Assembly (NCBI GenBank): GCA_016195025.1
Contig: JACQAL010000077.1
Span: 1 to 64,000, forward strand
DNA length: 64,000 bases
From: Bacteroidota bacterium
GTDB lineage: Bacteria > Bacteroidota > Bacteroidia > Palsa-948
Reading direction: 5' to 3'
Shown piece by piece: positions 11,050 to 45,815 of the stretch; position 1 is the first letter of the stretch; every line of letters begins with the position of its first letter. The notes below the pieces were generated by a model that was not told where the DNA came from, did not search any database, and was given only the letters and a program-made list of their open reading frames with translations. The position numbers were made by a program, and so were the translations under genes.

Positions 11050-12101
11050 AGATTCAATAGGAACTCCATCGTATTTATTCCATCCGCATAATCCCAAAGT
11101 TCCGGAGATTGCGATTGTCCGAACGCTACCGTTGGTCGGGATTTAAAATCCCGACCAGCAACTATGCACTGAATAGTTGACTTTTCTTTTTCTAATCTTT
11201 TCAGAAGCTCTTCTTTGCTTTCATACCGCTCGTAAAATAAATTTGCAACAGGCGAAGCAATCCGTTTATCTTCTTTCAGTAATAAAAAATTATTATCGAA
11301 AAACTTTTCTTTGTTCAGCAGGTAAATGCTGCGGTAATAAGTATAGTTGTTGTAATATTTATTGTGATGAATCACATCGCTAAAATCAATAATGGCAGAA
11401 AAGAATTTATCCAAGTCGTAATTCTGCGGAATAAAAACCTTTGAAACGTTTCTGCATCCCAATCCAAAATACTGAAAAATATCTTCGCCCAGGTTTTGTA
11501 AATCTTCTTTCGTTTCCTTTCCGTCAAGTATGGCAACTGCATTTCTGTTTTTCCGAATGATATGAGGAAAGTTGGAAAAGTAATATTCAAAATAGCGCGC
11601 ACTGTTGTTGCTGCCGGTGGCAATGAAGGCAGATGTCCTTTCCCTGAAGCCGTGCCTGCCGGCAGGCAGGGGAGAATCAGAGGAAACAAATAGTATGTTG
11701 TTTTTGAATTCCGGCTCAATCCCAATCACTATTTCTGAAACTGCCGGCAAAAGAAATCTATCTTCCGAAGAAAGTTTCCCCACGCAACTATTTCCGCTCA
11801 TCAGCACGCATAAAAAATCGTGAAAACCAACCAAAGGAATATTTCCTGCCATGATAACTCCAATGCGATGGTTGATGGTTGATGGTTGATGGTTGATGGA
11901 ATAGGATGAAATCCATTTTCTGATTTTATCTTCTGCAAGCATTTCCCCGATAGAATTAATAGCAAGCAAAATATTTTCTTCCGTAAACCAGCCGTTATGT
12001 TTTTCTGCTTTATGAATTGCCTGTAACAGATTGTCTTCTGGTTTCTTCCTGAGAATTTCTCCAAGTTTTGCAAAAGCGACAATTCTTTTTTCTAAATTCA
12101 T
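11040..12101 (-). CDS. LuxC-type acyl-CoA reductase with two repeat-derived insertions
   Basis: A 353-residue protein of the acyl-CoA reductase (LuxC) family, which reduces activated fatty acids to aldehydes. Supporting segments are IGVIMAGNIPLVGFHDFLCVLMSGN (core at about 80), FIATGSNNSARYFEYYF and GLGCRNVSKVFIP with the probable catalytic Cys at about 218. Two pieces do not belong to the fold: SINHQPSTINH at about 68-78, encoded by a heptamer array, and LPAGRHGF at about 148-156, encoded by a GCCTGCCGGCAGGC palindrome. Both keep the frame open. It ends convergently with the carboxylase and is divergent from the ferredoxin gene. Confidence 0.82.
   Translation of the reverse strand: MNLEKRIVAFAKLGEILRKKPEDNLLQAIHKAEKHNGWFTEENILLAINSIGEMLAEDKIRKWISSYSINHQPSTINHRIGVIMAGNIPLVGFHDFLCVLMSGNSCVGKLSSEDRFLLPAVSEIVIGIEPEFKNNILFVSSDSPLPAGRHGFRERTSAFIATGSNNSARYFEYYFSNFPHIIRKNRNAVAILDGKETKEDLQNLGEDIFQYFGLGCRNVSKVFIPQNYDLDKFFSAIIDFSDVIHHNKYYNNYTYYRSIYLLNKEKFFDNNFLLLKEDKRIASPVANLFYERYESKEELLKRLEKEKSTIQCIVAGRDFKSRPTVAFGQSQSPELWDYADGINTMEFLLNLHV
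11654..11667. repeat. GC-rich palindrome inside the LuxC-type gene
   Basis: A perfect 14-bp palindrome, GCCTGCCGGCAGGC, extended on the right by another CAGG. It lies within the reading frame and encodes the Leu-Pro-Ala-Gly-Arg stretch. Confidence 0.8.
11867..11899. repeat. Heptanucleotide tandem repeat (gatggtt), 4.7 units, in coding sequence
   Basis: Four full units of gatggtt and a partial fifth. It lies in frame within the LuxC-type gene and encodes SxNHQP-type residues. Because 7 is not a multiple of 3, gain or loss of one unit would shift the frame. Confidence 0.9.
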
Positions 12102-26121: not shown

Positions 26122-27957
26122 CTAATTCACATTATCCCCTCTCAACCTTCTGAATCTTTTTCTCGCTTCCACCGTGTATAAACTTCCGGGAAATCTGGTA
26201 AGAAGGTCTTCGTAGTATTCTTTTGCTTTGTCAACGTTATTCAGGTAAAGTTCGTTCAACTCGGCAAGTTTGAAGAGCGCGTCATCACCTAAAATATCGA
26301 ATCCGTAGTTGTCTAAAAGTTTTTGCAATTGCTCTCCGGCTTCCGGAAATTTCCCCTGTTTCATTTTGATTTGATATTTTTTATAGAGAATATCATCGGC
26401 AAGCGAAGTGTTTGGAAATTTTTTCTGAATGGAATCAAGCGTGAGTAACGATTTTTCCAATTCATTTCTGAAGACAAGCAAATCCGCGCGCGAGAATAGG
26501 GCAAGCGCAAGTGAGTCGCCATCGTTTTTCAGATTATCGCTGATGGTGAGCGAAAGTTCCATCGCGTCATTGGCAATTAATTTTTCCGTGGAGCCCTTCA
26601 GCACATCGAGCTGCGCCTGCGACCATTTGAACTCTCCGCTGTAATAAGAAAGTTTCGCGTTGCGGAGTTTTGCTTCATCGCCCATCGGTTCATGTTTGAA
26701 ATCCAGTTGCACTTGCGAATACAAAAGCGAAGCATCCCAGATTTCTCCTTTCATTAAAAGAATATCTCCGAGTTCGAGTTTGCATTCCGCCTGCGTGGTT
26801 GGATTTATTCCCTGAAGTTTAATCGCGTCATTCAGCAAATCAGAAGCTTCCTTTGTTTTTCCCATGAAAAATCCCTGAAGGTGAGCGAGATTTTTTACAA
26901 GAATGGCAGTGCCCGAACTTTTTCCGAGTTCATTCAAGGTGATGTTGAAATTTTTTTCGAGTTCAATCAAATCATTCTGCGTGTAAGAAAATTTTGTCGT
27001 TACTTTTTTATACTGCGCATTCAAAAGTTCCATCCGCGCGTTGATGTAATTATAATTGTCTTTTCCTTTTTCAATCACATACTGAAAACATTTCGCAGCT
27101 GTTTCATATTCTTCGTTTGAAACGCAGAGTTGACCGAGCGCCATTAAACGTTGTCCGTCTTCACGCAGGCGTTTATCCAGCGCTTTCGACTGAATAAATG
27201 CTCCGTTAAAATTTTTTTCCTGGATGAAAAACCAAATCAGCAGTTCGGTGTAAACAGTTTTCTCCGGGCTTGCCTGAACTTTTTTCAGCAATTCTTCTTT
27301 AATGATTTCATTTTTCTTTTCGTCTTTGTCCTCTCCAAACGATGGCTGTAATCCATTCTGCACTGTTTGCAACTGGTCATCTCCATAGTCGAGCAGCGAA
27401 AGATATTCGCTCACCATGCCATGTATGTCACCTTTCTTTTCATACACAGCGGCAATTTCAGAATTGAAAGGATAAAATCCATTCAGCAATTTTCTGCCGC
27501 GCTTGTACGTTTCCACTGCGTAATCCCATTCCTGCAATTGCATAAAAGAAGTTGCCAGATCAAAAATCTGTTTCTGGTCGGCAGATAATTGTTTCAGCGC
27601 TTTTTCATACTGCGAATTTCCTTTTTCAGTTTCATTTTCGTCTTTGTAAAGCGTGCCGAGGTGAACCACATAAGTTAAATTCTGCGGATACTGCTTGATA
27701 ACTTTCTTAATCATTTTTTCCGCCTTGTCATATTGCTGAAGTTTTGTGAGGCAAAGCAGGTAAGGATTGTAATAAGCGATTCCATCTTTTTTATTGAAAA
27801 ACTTTTCGTAATAAACAATTGCCTTGTCAAATTCTTTGTTCTGCAAATATTGAAATGCGAGTTGCTCGTCAGTAGTTGGCTGCGCAAATGTGCTAATGAC
27901 AAATGACAAATGACAAATGACAAATGACAAAATCCTATTTCGTATTTTTCGTATCAT
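26122..27957 (-). CDS. Exported TPR-repeat protein
   Basis: A 611-residue helical protein with about ten TPR-like units, for example FDKAIVYYEKFF, YDKAEKMIKKVIKQYP, WDYAVETYKRG, and a final VDKAKEYYEDLLTRFPGSLYTVEARKR. The N-terminal 25 residues form a signal peptide whose hydrophobic core is encoded by five copies of a 7-bp repeat. Probably periplasmic and acting as a scaffold; no partner can be named. A lipoprotein gene with its own heptamer repeat lies immediately upstream (23 bp). Confidence 0.85.
   Translation of the reverse strand: MIRKIRNRILSFVICHLSFVISTFAQPTTDEQLAFQYLQNKEFDKAIVYYEKFFNKKDGIAYYNPYLLCLTKLQQYDKAEKMIKKVIKQYPQNLTYVVHLGTLYKDENETEKGNSQYEKALKQLSADQKQIFDLATSFMQLQEWDYAVETYKRGRKLLNGFYPFNSEIAAVYEKKGDIHGMVSEYLSLLDYGDDQLQTVQNGLQPSFGEDKDEKKNEIIKEELLKKVQASPEKTVYTELLIWFFIQEKNFNGAFIQSKALDKRLREDGQRLMALGQLCVSNEEYETAAKCFQYVIEKGKDNYNYINARMELLNAQYKKVTTKFSYTQNDLIELEKNFNITLNELGKSSGTAILVKNLAHLQGFFMGKTKEASDLLNDAIKLQGINPTTQAECKLELGDILLMKGEIWDASLLYSQVQLDFKHEPMGDEAKLRNAKLSYYSGEFKWSQAQLDVLKGSTEKLIANDAMELSLTISDNLKNDGDSLALALFSRADLLVFRNELEKSLLTLDSIQKKFPNTSLADDILYKKYQIKMKQGKFPEAGEQLQKLLDNYGFDILGDDALFKLAELNELYLNNVDKAKEYYEDLLTRFPGSLYTVEARKRFRRLRGDNVN
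27895..27929. repeat. Heptanucleotide tandem repeat (aatgaca)x5 in a signal-peptide coding region
   Basis: Five exact units. On the minus strand they encode the hydrophobic LSFVICHLSFVI core of the TPR protein's signal peptide. A change of one unit would shift the frame and abolish the protein. Confidence 0.95.
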
Positions 27958-27980: not shown

Positions 27981-28553
27981 TTATCGCGGACGAAGATTTA
28001 AACTGTCGGCTAAAAATGTGATTTGTGTTTTCATCGAATCCAATTTTGCTGAAGCAATTTTTGCTTTTTCAATTGTGCGCTGAATTACATTTGAAATTTT
28101 TCCTGCCGCATTCATTTCGTTAACGATATACTCCTGCGATTTATTTTTCTCAATCAAATCTTCTTTTAAGTCGTGTTTCAAATCGCTGATTCGGTGCTCC
28201 GATTCTTTTATTGCTCTTTCCAAATATTTTTTATTATCTAACAAGTTAAGAATATTTCCTGAACATTCAGAAGCATCCGACAAAAACATTGCCGTTTTTT
28301 TGTTTATGGTGTCCTTCGCCAGTTTTTCATAGATGGAATGAAGCTGCAGGAAGGAAGAATTATAATTTGCACGAAAAGAATTTGTATCGGCAGATTCTAA
28401 AACTTTTTCTGTTTCAGCTAAAATATTATTTGCGCTATCGATCCGTGAAATTTCTTTGGAGTAATCAGTTTTTTGTTTACAGGAAATAAAAAATGCAAGT
28501 AGGCAGTAGGCAGTAAGCAGTAGGCAAAAAGAAAAACGAATCGGTGTAATCAC
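27981..28553 (-). CDS. Coiled-coil lipoprotein of unknown function
   Basis: A 190-residue exported lipoprotein: the signal peptide ends in LLAFFISC, with the Cys at about residue 25. The rest is almost wholly helical and charged, with heptad-like spacing at about 105-150 (ERAIKESEHRISDLKHDLKEDLIEKNK). The signal-peptide core is encoded by a 7-bp tandem repeat. It precedes the TPR protein by 23 bp, so they may act together in the periplasm. No family recognised. Confidence 0.75.
   Translation of the reverse strand: MITPIRFSFCLLLTAYCLLAFFISCKQKTDYSKEISRIDSANNILAETEKVLESADTNSFRANYNSSFLQLHSIYEKLAKDTINKKTAMFLSDASECSGNILNLLDNKKYLERAIKESEHRISDLKHDLKEDLIEKNKSQEYIVNEMNAAGKISNVIQRTIEKAKIASAKLDSMKTQITFLADSLNLRPR
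28498..28525. repeat. Heptanucleotide tandem repeat (agtaggc)x4 in a signal-peptide coding region
   Basis: Four units, the third with one substitution (agtaagc). On the minus strand they encode the LLLTAYCLL core of the lipoprotein signal peptide. Confidence 0.93.
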
Positions 28554-40805: not shown

Positions 40806-42743
40806 ATGGGAAAGATTATCGGAATTGACCTTGGAACAACCAACTCGTGCGTAGCCGTTATGGAAGGCAGCGACCCTGTTGTGATTCCTAACAGCGAAGG
40901 GAAACGAACAACTCCTTCGATTGTGGCGTTCATGAAAGACGGGGAGCGCAAAGTGGGCGACCCTGCAAAACGCCAGGCAGTAACAAATCCAAAACATACC
41001 GTGTATTCCATCAAGCGTTTCATTGGCCACAACATGGCAGAAATTAATGAAGCGATGAAACATATTCCTTATAAAGTTGTGGCGGGAGATAACGGAGTTC
41101 CGCGCGTGGTGATTGACGACCGCAAATTTTCTCCGCAGGAAGTTTCTGCGCTCATTCTTCAGAAGATGAAGAAGACCGCTGAAGATTATCTGGGGCAGAC
41201 AGTCACCGAAGCGGTGATCACCGTTCCCGCGTACTTCAACGATTCGCAACGGCAGGCAACGAAAGAAGCCGGAGAAATTGCAGGACTGAAAGTAATGCGC
41301 ATCATCAACGAGCCCACAGCCGCAGCGCTTGCATACGGACTCGACAAGAAAAATAAAGACAGCAAGATTGCCGTGTTCGATTTGGGAGGAGGAACTTTTG
41401 ATATTTCCATTCTCGAATTAGGAGACGGAGTGTTTGAAGTGAAATCCACCAACGGAGATACTTTTTTGGGCGGAGATGACTTCGACCAGAAAATAGTGGA
41501 ATGGCTTGCCGATGAATTCAAAAAAGACGAAGGACTGGACCTGCGCAAAGACCCGATGGCGCTTCAGCGTTTGAAAGAAGCGGCAGAGCGCGCGAAGATC
41601 GAACTGTCCTCTTCAACGCAGGCAGAAATAAATTTACCGTACATCATGCCCGTGGATGGTGTGCCGAAGCACTTAGTAAAAACTCTTACCCGCGCAAAGT
41701 TCGAGCAGATGTGCGATGACCTTTTGAAGCGCGCACTCGAGCCCTGCAAAAAAGCCATGGCGGATGCAGGAGTAAAAAATACCGACATCAACGAAGTGAT
41801 TCTTGTTGGCGGAATGACCCGCATGCCCAAGGTGCAGGAGATGGTTAAGAATTTCTTCGGAAGGGAACCGCACAAAGGCGTGAACCCTGACGAGGTGGTA
41901 GCGGTGGGCGCAGCGATTCAAGGCGGAGTATTAACAGGAGATGTAAAGGATGTTCTCCTGCTCGATGTTACTCCATTAACTCTCGGAATTGAGACCATGG
42001 GAAGTGTGATGACAAAACTGATAGAAGCAAACACAACCATACCCAGCAAAAAGTCAGAAACATTTTCTACAGCGGCAGATAGTCAGCCATCTGTTGAGAT
42101 ACATATTCTGCAAGGCGAGCGCCCGATGGCGAAAGACAACCGCACACTCGGAAGATTTATTCTGGACGGAATTCCGCCCGCACCCCGCGGAGTGCCGCAG
42201 ATAGAAGTAACGTTTGATATTGACGCGAACGGAATTTTGGCGGTAACTGCAAAAGACAAAGCCACCGGAAAATCTCAGAACATACGCATTGAAGCAAAGA
42301 GCGGACTGAGCGATGCCGAAATTAAAAAGATGAAGCAGGAAGCAGAAGCCAACGCGGAGAGCGACAAGAAAGCAAAAGAAGAAGTGGAAAAAGTGAACGC
42401 TGCCGATGCAATGATTTTCCAGACAGAAAAACAAATGAAAGAGTTTGGAGAAAAGATACCTGCCGATAAAAAAGAAGCCATACAAAAAGCCCTGAGCGAT
42501 TTGAAAGACGCGCACAAGGAAAAAGATTTGGCTAAGATTGAAACCACTCTTGCCGCGCTCAACACCGCCTGGCATGCCGCAAGTGAAGACATATATAAGG
42601 CACAACAACAGGGACAAGGGACAGGGGACAAGGGAACAAGTGAACAGTCGCATACGAACGGACAAACCAACGGTGAAACAAAAAAAGATGAGGCGGTAAC
42701 CGATGTAGATTTCGAAGAAGTGAAGGATGATAAGAAGAAATAA
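40806..42743 (+). CDS. dnaK: Chaperone DnaK (Hsp70)
   Basis: A 645-residue ATP-dependent chaperone. [20 protein letters not shown] opens it; [28 protein letters not shown] and [20 protein letters not shown] mark the nucleotide-binding and substrate-binding domains. The lid ends in a Gln/Gly/Thr-rich linker ([15 protein letters not shown]), encoded by an imperfect ggacaaggga repeat, then EEVKDDKKK. dnaJ and grpE are not adjacent. A terminator follows. Confidence 0.97.
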
Positions 42744-42785: not shown

Positions 42786-42801
42786 ATTTTTTGTGTTCAA
42801 A

Positions 42802-43929
42802 ATGGATAAAGAAAAAGCTATTCAAGATTTTTCACAAGGAGATGCTCGGACATATTCTCTTGAGGAGCAGATTCACATTATAAAGAAAATTCCAGATGTA
42901 AAACTCTTGGAAAGTAAAGACCAAAAATTAACTTTTACTGGACTAACTAGCTATTTACGAACCGTAAAAGAAATACTTGACGGGATTGATGAGGAAAATA
43001 TAAAAAATATACCTAAAGAAATCTTGAATGAATTTACTGGAATTTTTTCTGGTTTATTTAATCTATTGTTACGCATTAAACAAACTACTTTAAATGTTAA
43101 TGAAACGCCACAAAGACAAATGCAGAACATTGTTAATGATTTTGCAGCACATATAAACTCTGGCAGAAAAATTCTTATAGATGCAATACCATTAATAAAA
43201 GCTTACGCTCCACAAAATATAGATACAGATTCAAAAAAAGAAGCTGACAAAAAAATAGAAGCACTTCTTCAAGAGCTTGAAAAGCATAAAAAGAATGCAG
43301 AGATACGCGCAGCTCAAGTAGAAAAAAGCGCAAAGAGTATTGAGCAATTGGAAAGTAATTTAAGTGACGCTGATAAAAAGTTAAAAGATTTGCTTTCGAG
43401 AACAGATATTAGGCAGAAGCAATTTGAATTTTCTGATGAAGCGCTAAATAATAAGAGAAGAGCGAACTATTGGTTGTATTGCGGTATTGTCCCATTAAGT
43501 ATTATTCTTTTAGGAATTATTGGTCATATATTTTATTGCTTCAAAGGGGAATTTATTGATGTTACATATAATGCTTTTGCTGATAAAAAATTAATTGTAA
43601 CTGATAGTTTTTCACATACTGTATTGTTGTTTGAGTTTATTAAATCTATATCCATTCGTGTGCTTTTTATTTCATTACTAATTTACTTTTTAGTTCTTGC
43701 TGTAAAAAATTATAATGCTCAAATGCATAATTATATTGTAAATACTCATAAGACAAATTCTTTATCGTCTATTGTTGGATTAATTGGAAAAATAACTAGT
43801 CCAGCAAATCAGGAGAAGTTTATCGTTCAAGCATCACAAATAATTTATTCTCATCAAAAGAGTGGTTATTCAGGAAAAGAAGTTGGTCCAGGAATATTCA
43901 ATAAAATAGTAGAGAAGGTTTCTAATTAA
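42802..43929 (+). CDS. Coiled-coil protein with two C-terminal membrane helices, unknown function
   Basis: A 375-residue protein, not recognised. Residues 1-130 are helical and charged. A long coiled coil runs from about 145 to 215 (KKEADKKIEALLQELEKHKKN, then EQLESNLSDADKKLKDLL). Two hydrophobic helices at about 230-250 and 285-310 are separated by a loop of about 35 residues, and a soluble tail of about 60 residues ends it. Noticeably richer in A/T and AAA/ATA codons than dnaK next door, so it is probably an acquired gene. I use the ATG at 42802; a GTG 9 bp upstream is possible. It sits between the dnaK terminator and the repeat block. Confidence 0.75.
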   Translation: MDKEKAIQDFSQGDARTYSLEEQIHIIKKIPDVKLLESKDQKLTFTGLTSYLRTVKEILDGIDEENIKNIPKEILNEFTGIFSGLFNLLLRIKQTTLNVNETPQRQMQNIVNDFAAHINSGRKILIDAIPLIKAYAPQNIDTDSKKEADKKIEALLQELEKHKKNAEIRAAQVEKSAKSIEQLESNLSDADKKLKDLLSRTDIRQKQFEFSDEALNNKRRANYWLYCGIVPLSIILLGIIGHIFYCFKGEFIDVTYNAFADKKLIVTDSFSHTVLLFEFIKSISIRVLFISLLIYFLVLAVKNYNAQMHNYIVNTHKTNSLSSIVGLIGKITSPANQEKFIVQASQIIYSHQKSGYSGKEVGPGIFNKIVEKVSN

Positions 43930-43973
43930 CCCAGTCCACGCTAATCCCGCTATGGCAGGCAAGAGTGCGGGAG
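43930..43973. repeat. Left framing element of the repeat block
   Basis: cccagtccacgctaa ... gtgcgggag resembles the elements at 44667-44700 and 45674-45707, though its middle has diverged. It starts one base after the stop of the preceding gene. Confidence 0.6.
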
Positions 43974-43977
43974 AAGC

Positions 43978-44012
43978 GCTTTTTTTCACTAAAAACAAGG
44001 TTTCTGTGATTT
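43978..44012. repeat. 35-bp direct repeat, left copy
   Basis: Begins gcttttttt and ends ctgtgattt. An identical copy lies at 44439-44473, so the two bracket the first tandem array. Confidence 0.9.
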
Positions 44013-44459
44013 CTCAGCACTGAGAAATAATTTCTCAGCATCGCGGAATGCTTTCTCAGCACTGGGGAACCATTTCTCAGCATCGCGGAATGCTTCCCCA
44101 GCATCGCGGAATGCTTTCTCAGCATCGCGGAATGCTTCCCCAGCATCGCGGAATGCTTTCTCAGCATCGCGGAACGATTTCTCAGCATCGCGGAATGCTT
44201 CCCCAGCATCGCGGAACGATTTCTCAGCATCGCGGAATGATTCCCCATTATCGCGGAATTCTTCCCCGGCATCGCGGAACGATTCCCCAGCATCGCGGAA
44301 TGCTTCCCCGGCATCGCGGAACGATTTCTCAGCATCGCGGAATGATTCCCCATTATCGCGGAATTCTTCCCCGGCATCGCGGAACGATTCCCCAGCATCG
44401 CGGAACGATTCCCCAGCATCGCGGAATGCTGGGGAAGTGCTTTTTTTCACTAAAAACAA
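43989..44459 (-). CDS. Possible heptad-repeat protein (FRDAGE/FRDAEK), doubtful
   Basis: A 156-codon minus-strand frame starting at TTG within the right 35-bp direct repeat and ending in the left one. Each 21-bp unit gives one heptapeptide, mostly SFRDAGE or AFRDAEK. Phe and Ala are three apart, as the a and d positions of a coiled coil would be, and the diverged last units keep AEK (WFPSAEK, LFLSAEK). Against it: the DNA unit lacks stop codons in all frames, there is no promoter, and the start is TTG. It is more likely non-coding. Confidence 0.2.
   Translation of the reverse strand: MFLVKKSTSPAFRDAGESFRDAGESFRDAGEEFRDNGESFRDAEKSFRDAGEAFRDAGESFRDAGEEFRDNGESFRDAEKSFRDAGEAFRDAEKSFRDAEKAFRDAGEAFRDAEKAFRDAGEAFRDAEKWFPSAEKAFRDAEKLFLSAEKSQKPCF
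44010..44429. repeat. Tandem array 1: 20 units of a 21-bp repeat
   Basis: The unit is tttctcagcatcgcggaatgc or its variant ttccccagcatcgcggaatgc. All 20 units keep exact 21-bp phase without an indel. Unit types alternate irregularly; a four-unit block near 44199-44282 recurs at 44304-44387, so segmental duplication has occurred. AGCAT and ATGCT within each unit can pair around CGCGGA; the last unit makes a 9-bp hairpin, CCCCAGCAT/ATGCTGGGG. Confidence 0.95.
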
Positions 44460-44473
44460 GGTTTCTGTGATTT
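44439..44473. repeat. 35-bp direct repeat, right copy
   Basis: Identical to 43978-44012. It separates array 1 from array 2. Confidence 0.9.
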
Positions 44474-44479
44474 AGTGAC

Positions 44480-44668
44480 GGGACTAAATGATTTAGTCCT
44501 TGGACTGAATGGCTTAGTCCATGGATTAAATGACTCAATCTCTGGACTGAATTGCTGAGTCCTTTGATTAAATGATTCAGTCCATGCAATGAATCCTTTA
44601 TTCGGTGGACTGAACGGTTTAATCCATTAAATCAATGACTCAGTCCGGATACTGAATGATTTAGTCCC
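44480..44668. repeat. Tandem array 2: 9 units of a 21-bp palindromic repeat
   Basis: Units such as ggactaaatgatttagtcc plus two bases: the first is a perfect palindrome with 9-bp arms and one central base. The other eight diverge by several substitutions but keep the 21-bp phase and partial palindromy. Sequence unrelated to array 1 despite the same period. Confidence 0.9.
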
Positions 44669-44703
44669 AGTCCGCGCTAAGCTCCTGCTTAGTGCGGGAG
44701 AGA
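44667..44703. repeat. Right framing hairpin element
   Basis: cgcgctaag (44673-44681) pairs with cttagtgcg (44688-44696), loop ctcctg. The same element recurs at 45674-45707. Confidence 0.85.
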
Positions 44704-44750: not shown

Positions 44751-44984
44751 ATGACAACCACAGCCATCCGCAAAAAAGTGCATCAATATGTTGATGAAGC
44801 GGAAGAAAATGTTTTGGAAGTAATTTATAAAATGCTCAAACTTTATTCTGGCGATGAGAGTGAAAGCTTAATGTCGGATGAGCAAAAAAAAGAAATGGAC
44901 AGGCGCAGCAAACTTTTCCGCCAGGGAAAGTTAAAAACATCTTCGTGGGAAGAAGTGAAACAGAGAACCCGCGCAGGAAGGTAA
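44751..44984 (+). CDS. Antitoxin of a RelE/ParE-type addiction module
   Basis: A 77-residue protein of the type found before ParE/RelE toxins in Bacteroidota: a helical N-terminus (RKKVHQYVDEAEENVLEVIYKML), a Glu-rich middle, and a basic end SWEEVKQRTRAGR with the WEEV motif common in such antitoxins. It should bind and neutralise the toxin encoded one base after its stop, and repress the operon through its promoter. No DNA-binding domain is clear. Confidence 0.78.
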   Translation: MTTTAIRKKVHQYVDEAEENVLEVIYKMLKLYSGDESESLMSDEQKKEMDRRSKLFRQGKLKTSSWEEVKQRTRAGR

Positions 44985-44985
44985 G

Positions 44986-45330
44986 ATGTATCATCTTTTT
45001 ATTACTGAAAAAGCAGAAGACGAATACTCCAATGCATATTGGTATTACGAAGAAAAACAAATTGGGCTTGGTGTATCATTTGAGAATGAGGCAGACCAAT
45101 TGCTCAAGACAATAAAAAAGAATCCATTTCTTTTCCAGCGCAAGTATAAAAAGTTCAGGGAAGTATTGCTTAACAGGTTTCCGTTTCTTATCGTATATGA
45201 AATTGTAAAAGACAAAATAGTTATTCATTCTTTCTTTCACACAAGCAGAAATCCTAAGAAGAAATATAAACAAACTCCAATCGTATCAACGCTCAACGAG
45301 CCCATGGAGCCATACGGCAAGAAAAAATAA
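44986..45330 (+). CDS. RelE/ParE-family toxin
   Basis: A 114-residue toxin. LFITEKAEDEYSNAYWYYEEKQIGLGVSF is the N-terminal helical hairpin, followed by FLFQRKYKKFREVLLNRFPFLIVYEI, the beta-sheet with conserved Arg and Tyr residues, and VIHSFFHTSRNPKKK. This pattern is closer to ParE (gyrase poison) than to ribosome-dependent RelE, but the target cannot be fixed. A C-terminal tail of about 20 residues extends past the usual end. Confidence 0.85.
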   Translation: MYHLFITEKAEDEYSNAYWYYEEKQIGLGVSFENEADQLLKTIKKNPFLFQRKYKKFREVLLNRFPFLIVYEIVKDKIVIHSFFHTSRNPKKKYKQTPIVSTLNEPMEPYGKKK

Positions 45331-45657: not shown

Positions 45658-45707
45658 TACCGCACTTCTAATTCCCAGTACGCGCTAAGTTCTGCTTAGT
45701 GCGGTAG
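45658..45707. repeat. Hairpin element, third copy, with alternative stems
   Basis: cgcgctaag (45681-45689) pairs with cttagtgcg (45695-45703). In addition taccgcact (45658-45666) pairs perfectly with agtgcggta (45698-45706), so two mutually exclusive hairpins are possible. It lies downstream of the toxin-antitoxin region. Confidence 0.8.
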
Positions 45708-45815
45708 TAAATTGCTCCAAGACCTAAAGCAAGTTTCTTTTTCCATTTACTCTCTTCCCTCGTTTATTATACTTACATTACCAAAAATCAAATAAATCTT
45801 TTAATCAAAAAATCA

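What the first reader, a model, noticed from the sequence alone, without database searches (positions are those of the whole stretch)
43930..44703. Two adjacent 21-bp tandem arrays of unrelated sequence, framed by matching elements
Twenty units of one 21-bp repeat (44010-44429) and nine units of a different one (44480-44668) both keep exact 21-bp phase with no indel. Array 1 is bracketed by identical 35-bp direct repeats (43978, 44439), and the whole block is framed by related cgcgctaag...cttagtgcg hairpin elements. Most units can form hairpins; the first unit of array 2 is a perfect 19-base palindrome. Two different sequences with the same two-helical-turn period suggest selection on spacing, for example phased binding sites for a protein, or a replication or segregation locus, rather than chance slippage. 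It lies in an accessory stretch beside a toxin-antitoxin pair. I know of no described element with this layout.
Basis: partly seen in the sequence, partly recalled or inferred. Interest (0 to 1): 0.8.

Follow-up and report, generated by a model that had tools for sequence, protein, structure and literature searches.

The report
Genome-wide 21-bp satellite arrays
The two repeat arrays are only two of roughly a hundred noncoding arrays in this bacterium that have unrelated sequences but share the same 21-base step, and many of the others sit on a fixed side of members of two unknown gene families, so step length rather than sequence seems to be what is kept.

Summary
In detail: 20 + 9 units at exact 21-bp steps, a 35-bp exact direct repeat and framing hairpins. 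It is not a single locus. In 1.16 Mb of this genome (33%) I find 32 arrays, nearly all unrelated in sequence, at 21 bp or its multiples; other lags are almost empty. Congeners G005 and G001 have them too; 560 kb from other families has about three cases. The arrays are not coding. They show about 1 indel per 100 substitutions, and excess dyad symmetry (absent under fake-pairing controls) but no covariation. Near dnaK's 3' end, three species carry unrelated arrays; in two, the framing hairpins delimit swappable modules (array, toxin-antitoxin). Unexpectedly, 19 of 49 arrays abut genes of two uncharacterised protein families with fixed polarity: array 5' of family I (8/9), 3' of family II. The window's arrays are orphans of this class. 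Close paralogues (77-79% identical) have unrelated arrays. I found no published description. Best reading: a lineage-specific minisatellite class made or kept by a 21-bp ruler, acting through structure or spacing; mechanism unproven.

The parts
40806..42743 (+). dnaK, the conserved anchor of the locus in 6 of 7 congeners (own genome included)
   Evidence: ORF; orthologues
42793..43929 (+). 378-aa ORF with coiled-coil and membrane segments (by inspection); its stop codon abuts framing element 1; replaced by other genes in G005
43929..43975 (+). framing element 1, degenerate: flanks match, hairpin lost
43978..44012 (+). 35-bp direct repeat, copy 1 (T-rich leader of array 1)
44010..44429 (.). array 1: 20 units of 21 bp with 105-bp higher-order repeats
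44409..44446 (+). last unit of array 1 plus T-run, terminator-like; the scan finds no more such sites than expected by chance
44439..44473 (+). 35-bp direct repeat, copy 2 (leader of array 2)
44480..44668 (.). array 2: 9 palindromic units of 21 bp
44666..44702 (+). framing element 2, strong hairpin
44751..44984 (+). antitoxin (Unstab_antitox)
44986..45330 (+). ParE-family toxin
45672..45710 (+). framing element 3, strong hairpin

Best explanation
The two arrays belong to a lineage-specific class of noncoding minisatellites in this Bacteroidota genus. Shown: about 100 per genome by extrapolation; period locked to 21 bp and multiples whatever the sequence; almost no indels; excess dyad symmetry; different sequences near the same dnaK gene in three species; a subset tied with fixed polarity to two families of small uncharacterised proteins. 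Inferred: a process or constraint with a 21-bp ruler (two helical turns, or 3 x 7 given the heptamer repeats of the same genomes) makes and keeps them, and any function lies in spacing and palindromic structure beside fast-evolving genes, not in a particular sequence. At this locus the arrays lie in a module delimited by framing hairpins that differs between species and was probably moved by recombination between the short framing repeats.
For: Period excess at 21, 42, 63, 84 and 105. 49 arrays listed. Excess over genomes of other families. Noncoding: period-3 conservation in 1 of 49; arrays with an open frame 40 of 49 against 37.9 expected. 3 indels against at least 1153 substitutions, matching a simulated indel:substitution ratio near 0.01; detection loses few arrays with more indels. 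Dyad z 1.27 against -0.13 to 0.03 for fake pairings. dnaK locus in G000, G005, G001. Gene link: unbiased scan of 23 paralogue families, the top two are family I (8 of 9, p 1.5e-10, all 5') and family II (5 of 8, p 9e-6, all 3'); the L130 array lies 35 bp from a family II gene found only later.
Against: Only a third of the genome was read, using longest-ORF gene calls. The window's own arrays have no family I or II gene beside them. Two family members, L057 and L125, have no clear array. G006 has 10 family II genes but only one array in 124 kb, none of it read around those genes. Repeated homogenisation of arrays could also suppress indels. The genomes are fragmented assemblies, at least some of them metagenomic.
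Confidence: 0.6

Rival explanations
1. Purely mutational satellites: slippage or template switching at quasi-palindromes with a polymerase-set quantum of 7 n, no function; spacing is kept by repeated copying of whole units.
For: The same genomes are enriched in exact 7- and 14-bp tandem repeats, for which published work suggests a 7-nt polymerase footprint (PMC4679880) and reports heptamers as common and unexplained (PMC6344855). Higher-order 42/63/105 repeats show block duplication.
Against: No residual 7- or 14-bp signal inside the 21-bp arrays. Fixed polarity beside two gene families is not expected of random slippage.
Confidence: 0.3
2. Cis-regulatory arrays: units in 5' or 3' flanks tune expression of the adjacent gene; steps of two helical turns let copy number vary without rotating the sites.
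For: Array 3-180 bp upstream of family I starts and mostly 2-254 bp downstream of family II stops; dyad symmetry.
Against: Array sequences are unrelated even for close paralogues, so no shared regulator site; hairpin potential is about equal on both strands.
Confidence: 0.25
3. Coding heptapeptide repeats (21 bp = 7 codons).
For: Many arrays have an open frame; weak Pfam hits in array 1 frames.
Against: No codon periodicity (1 of 49); nine arrays, array 2 among them, have no open frame; the number with an open frame matches permuted columns; two arrays carry single-base indels.
Confidence: 0.03
4. Integron-like cassettes: framing elements are attC-like sites moved by an integrase.
For: Elements abut or contain stop codons and delimit swapped modules with a toxin-antitoxin pair between G000 and G005.
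Against: No integron integrase above cut-off in any congener; element about 36 bp without the RYYYAAC/GTTRRRY boxes; at most about 4 copies per genome.
Confidence: 0.07

Closest known systems
BrickBuilt minisatellite-MITE of Porphyromonas gingivalis (PMC4596501)
   Same: Bacteroidota; tandem minisatellite with leader and tail parts around the units
   Different: 23-nt unit of one family sequence inside a MITE; here a 21-bp step shared by unrelated sequences, and no common terminal inverted repeats seen
Bacterial heptanucleotide repeats (long simple sequence repeats; TAACTGA repeats, PMC4679880; SPADE survey, PMC6344855)
   Same: A fixed period shared across unrelated sequences; a 7-bp quantum; the same genomes are rich in heptamers
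   Different: 21-bp units show no internal 7-bp periodicity, are diverged, often palindromic and up to hundreds of bp long
Plasmid iterons / parS-like arrays (own knowledge)
   Same: Tandem units near two helical turns
   Different: About 100 arrays with unrelated sequences; no replication or partition gene recognised beside the window arrays

Membership tests
BrickBuilt-type MITE minisatellite | one shared unit sequence, 23 nt | tested here: not met
   Units mostly unrelated, 21 bp
BrickBuilt-type MITE minisatellite | terminal inverted repeats and copies dispersed as one element | tested here: not met
   The element has no other full copy in its own genome; one pair of arrays elsewhere is homologous
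CRISPR array | constant repeats separated by unique spacers | tested here: not met
   Contiguous units without spacers; no phage or plasmid match
Heptapeptide coding repeat | open frame with codon-wise conservation | tested here: not met
Integron cassette array | IntI integrase | tested here: not met
   0 of 7 genomes above the TIGR02249 cut-off
Integron cassette array | attC core boxes | tested here: not met
   Element sequence by inspection
Iteron replication origin | adjacent rep/par gene | tested here: not met
   Neighbours are dnaK, an unknown ORF and a toxin-antitoxin pair
Known structured RNA | match to an Rfam family | tested here: not met
   Nothing near gathering scores

The most novel reading that the evidence does not exclude
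A previously undescribed type of prokaryotic element: a gene of one of two orphan protein families plus a private noncoding array whose sequence is free but whose 21-bp step, dyad symmetry and side (5' for family I, 3' for family II) are fixed. The array would be made or read by a sequence-blind machinery that measures two helical turns.
Probability: 0.3. Interest if true: 0.85.

Novelty: new variant of a known kind. Interest (0 to 1): 0.62.

Why it matters
Minisatellites within one genome normally have mixed periods. One period shared by dozens of unrelated arrays in several species means something measures DNA length independently of sequence. The link to two orphan gene families gives a concrete, testable handle, and the heptamer excess in the same genomes connects to an open question about why 7-bp repeats are so common in prokaryotes.

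Tried and rejected
Coding heptads. Covariation as evidence for hairpins: the fake-pairing control gave the same signal, so the claim was dropped. Origin from heptamers: no lag-7 or lag-14 signal inside arrays. Integron integrase. Y1/REP transposase: one of three copies in G000 lies near an array, and none of the four recovered loci (L189-L192) shows one. Rfam. Phage or plasmid origin. Framing element outside the genus: 12 of 13 exact hits in the GTDB scan are single hits in scattered, unrelated taxa, taken as chance. Gene-end preference as terminators: divergent pairs outnumber convergent ones 11 to 5. Searches of families I and II against Pfam, NCBIfam and PDB gave nothing convincing.

Full report
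OBSERVATION. Array 1 has 20 units (44010-44429) and array 2 has 9 (44480-44668), both at exact 21-bp steps. Identity at lag 21 is 0.81 and 0.62; the largest of 1000 shuffles is 0.32 and 0.39. A 35-bp exact direct repeat precedes each array (43978, 44439), so the same T-rich leader stands before two different arrays. The framing element occurs three times (43929, 44666, 45672); the two rightmost fold strongly and the left one is degenerate. The toxin-antitoxin pair (PF09720, PF05016) lies between elements 2 and 3.

GENOME-WIDE CLASS. Tandem Repeats Finder on 401 kb of the own genome and 262 kb of congener G005 gave a sharp excess at period 21 and multiples. An ungapped lag scan of 1.16 Mb of G000 found 22, 29, 19, 19 and 14 arrays at lags 21, 42, 63, 84 and 105, and 0-3 at other lags up to 119; a count of 11 at lag 120, which is not a multiple of 21, was not followed up. 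Forty-nine arrays were listed (32 in G000, 13 in G005, 3 in G001, 1 in G006), nearly all mutually unrelated. The exceptions are one inverted pair (C25 and C53, 82% over 239 bp), two arrays 50 bp apart in C23, one array in G005:C116 that shares its start with window array 2, and a few short weak matches. Extrapolated, G000 holds about 90-100. In 560 kb from 18 genomes of other families, three loci show lag 21 or 42, one of them (G009) a clear palindromic 42-bp array. None was seen in 80 kb of congeners G003 and G004, which is too little to conclude.

NATURE. Not coding: codon-periodic conservation at p<0.05 in 1 of 49; arrays with an open frame 40 against 37.9 expected; nine arrays, array 2 included, have none. 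Spacing is held: adjacent units differ at 36% of positions (at least 1153 substitutions), yet only 3 indels are seen. Simulation shows this corresponds to about 0.01 indel per substitution and that arrays with more indels would mostly still have been detected. That ordinary noncoding bacterial DNA has several-fold more indels per substitution is my own knowledge, not tested here. Dyad symmetry is in excess (mean z 1.27; 14 of 49 arrays at p<0.05) while three fake base-pairing rules give about 0. Apparent covariation was equally strong under fake pairing, so I make no claim of it. Fold energies are similar on both strands, which speaks for a DNA-level rather than a transcript-level property. 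Lag 42 is stronger than lag 21, so dimers are often the amplified block.

SAME PLACE, DIFFERENT ARRAYS. Downstream of dnaK, G000 has ORF378, element, arrays 1 and 2, element, toxin-antitoxin, element. G005 has two other ORFs, element, toxin-antitoxin (antitoxin 63%, toxin 34% identical), element, an unrelated 21-bp array, element. G001 has an unrelated 42-bp palindromic array about 0.9 kb downstream of dnaK. G006 has one upstream of dnaK. The modules between elements thus differ in content and order between species. No integron integrase passes its cut-off, and the element was found only in this genus, so homologous recombination between the short elements is the cheaper reading.

LINK TO TWO GENE FAMILIES. 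Comparing genes beside arrays revealed two families of about 200-270 aa proteins with no convincing Pfam, NCBIfam or PDB relative. Family I has an array directly 5' in 8 of 9 assessable members; family II directly 3' in 8, with one 5'. Because the seeds were chosen next to arrays, I repeated the test without seeds. All 1265 ORFs of at least 130 aa kept from the sampled DNA were clustered; of 23 families with at least 4 members, these two rank first (8 of 9, p 1.5e-10, all 5'; 5 of 8, p 9e-6, all 3'), and a family of large proteins comes third (9 of 75, p 0.0065). A whole-genome profile search later placed a family II gene 35 bp from the array in L130, on the expected side. Copy numbers are 28 (II) and 19 (I) in G000, 9 and 5 in G005, 6 and 2 in G001, 10 and 0 in G006, and 0-1 in the other congeners; some members occur in other families, notably the family of G009. 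Proteins 77-79% identical have arrays no more alike than random 21-mers, so the array sequence does not co-evolve with the protein.

WHAT IS NOT SHOWN. The window's arrays have no family I or II gene beside them; they are members of the array class only. L057 and L125 lack clear arrays. No expression data exist here. The ruler could be selective (two helical turns) or mutational (3 x 7; the same genomes carry many heptamer repeats, a known and unexplained phenomenon: PMC4679880, PMC6344855).

VERDICT. Observation confirmed. The closest described relative, BrickBuilt of P. gingivalis (PMC4596501), differs in having one unit sequence of 23 nt. In the library searched I found no description of a sequence-independent 21-bp array class.

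Noticed in passing
11867-11899, 27895-27931, 28498-28526: Heptamer tandem repeats, typical of this genus (lag 7: 4.5 per 100 kb in G000, none in 341 kb of six other families). Two lie in N-terminal, signal-peptide-like codons, one inside a gene.
   Followed up: partly
L154:16663-17757: selD of this genome carries an in-frame segment of about 80 bp that recurs at several other places in G000, G003 and G005; it appears absent from selD of G005.
   Followed up: no
L034:1765-2012 and L041:17041-17308: Two distant arrays are homologous in inverted orientation (82% over 239 bp), so arrays can move or be copied.
   Followed up: partly
L175:309-577: A genome of another family (G009), which also carries family I and II genes, has a 42-bp palindromic array (CATTCGCACATGTGCGAATG).
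   Followed up: partly
L152:1653-1994: A Y1 (REP-type) transposase gene lies 0.5 kb from an array and a family I gene.
   Followed up: partly
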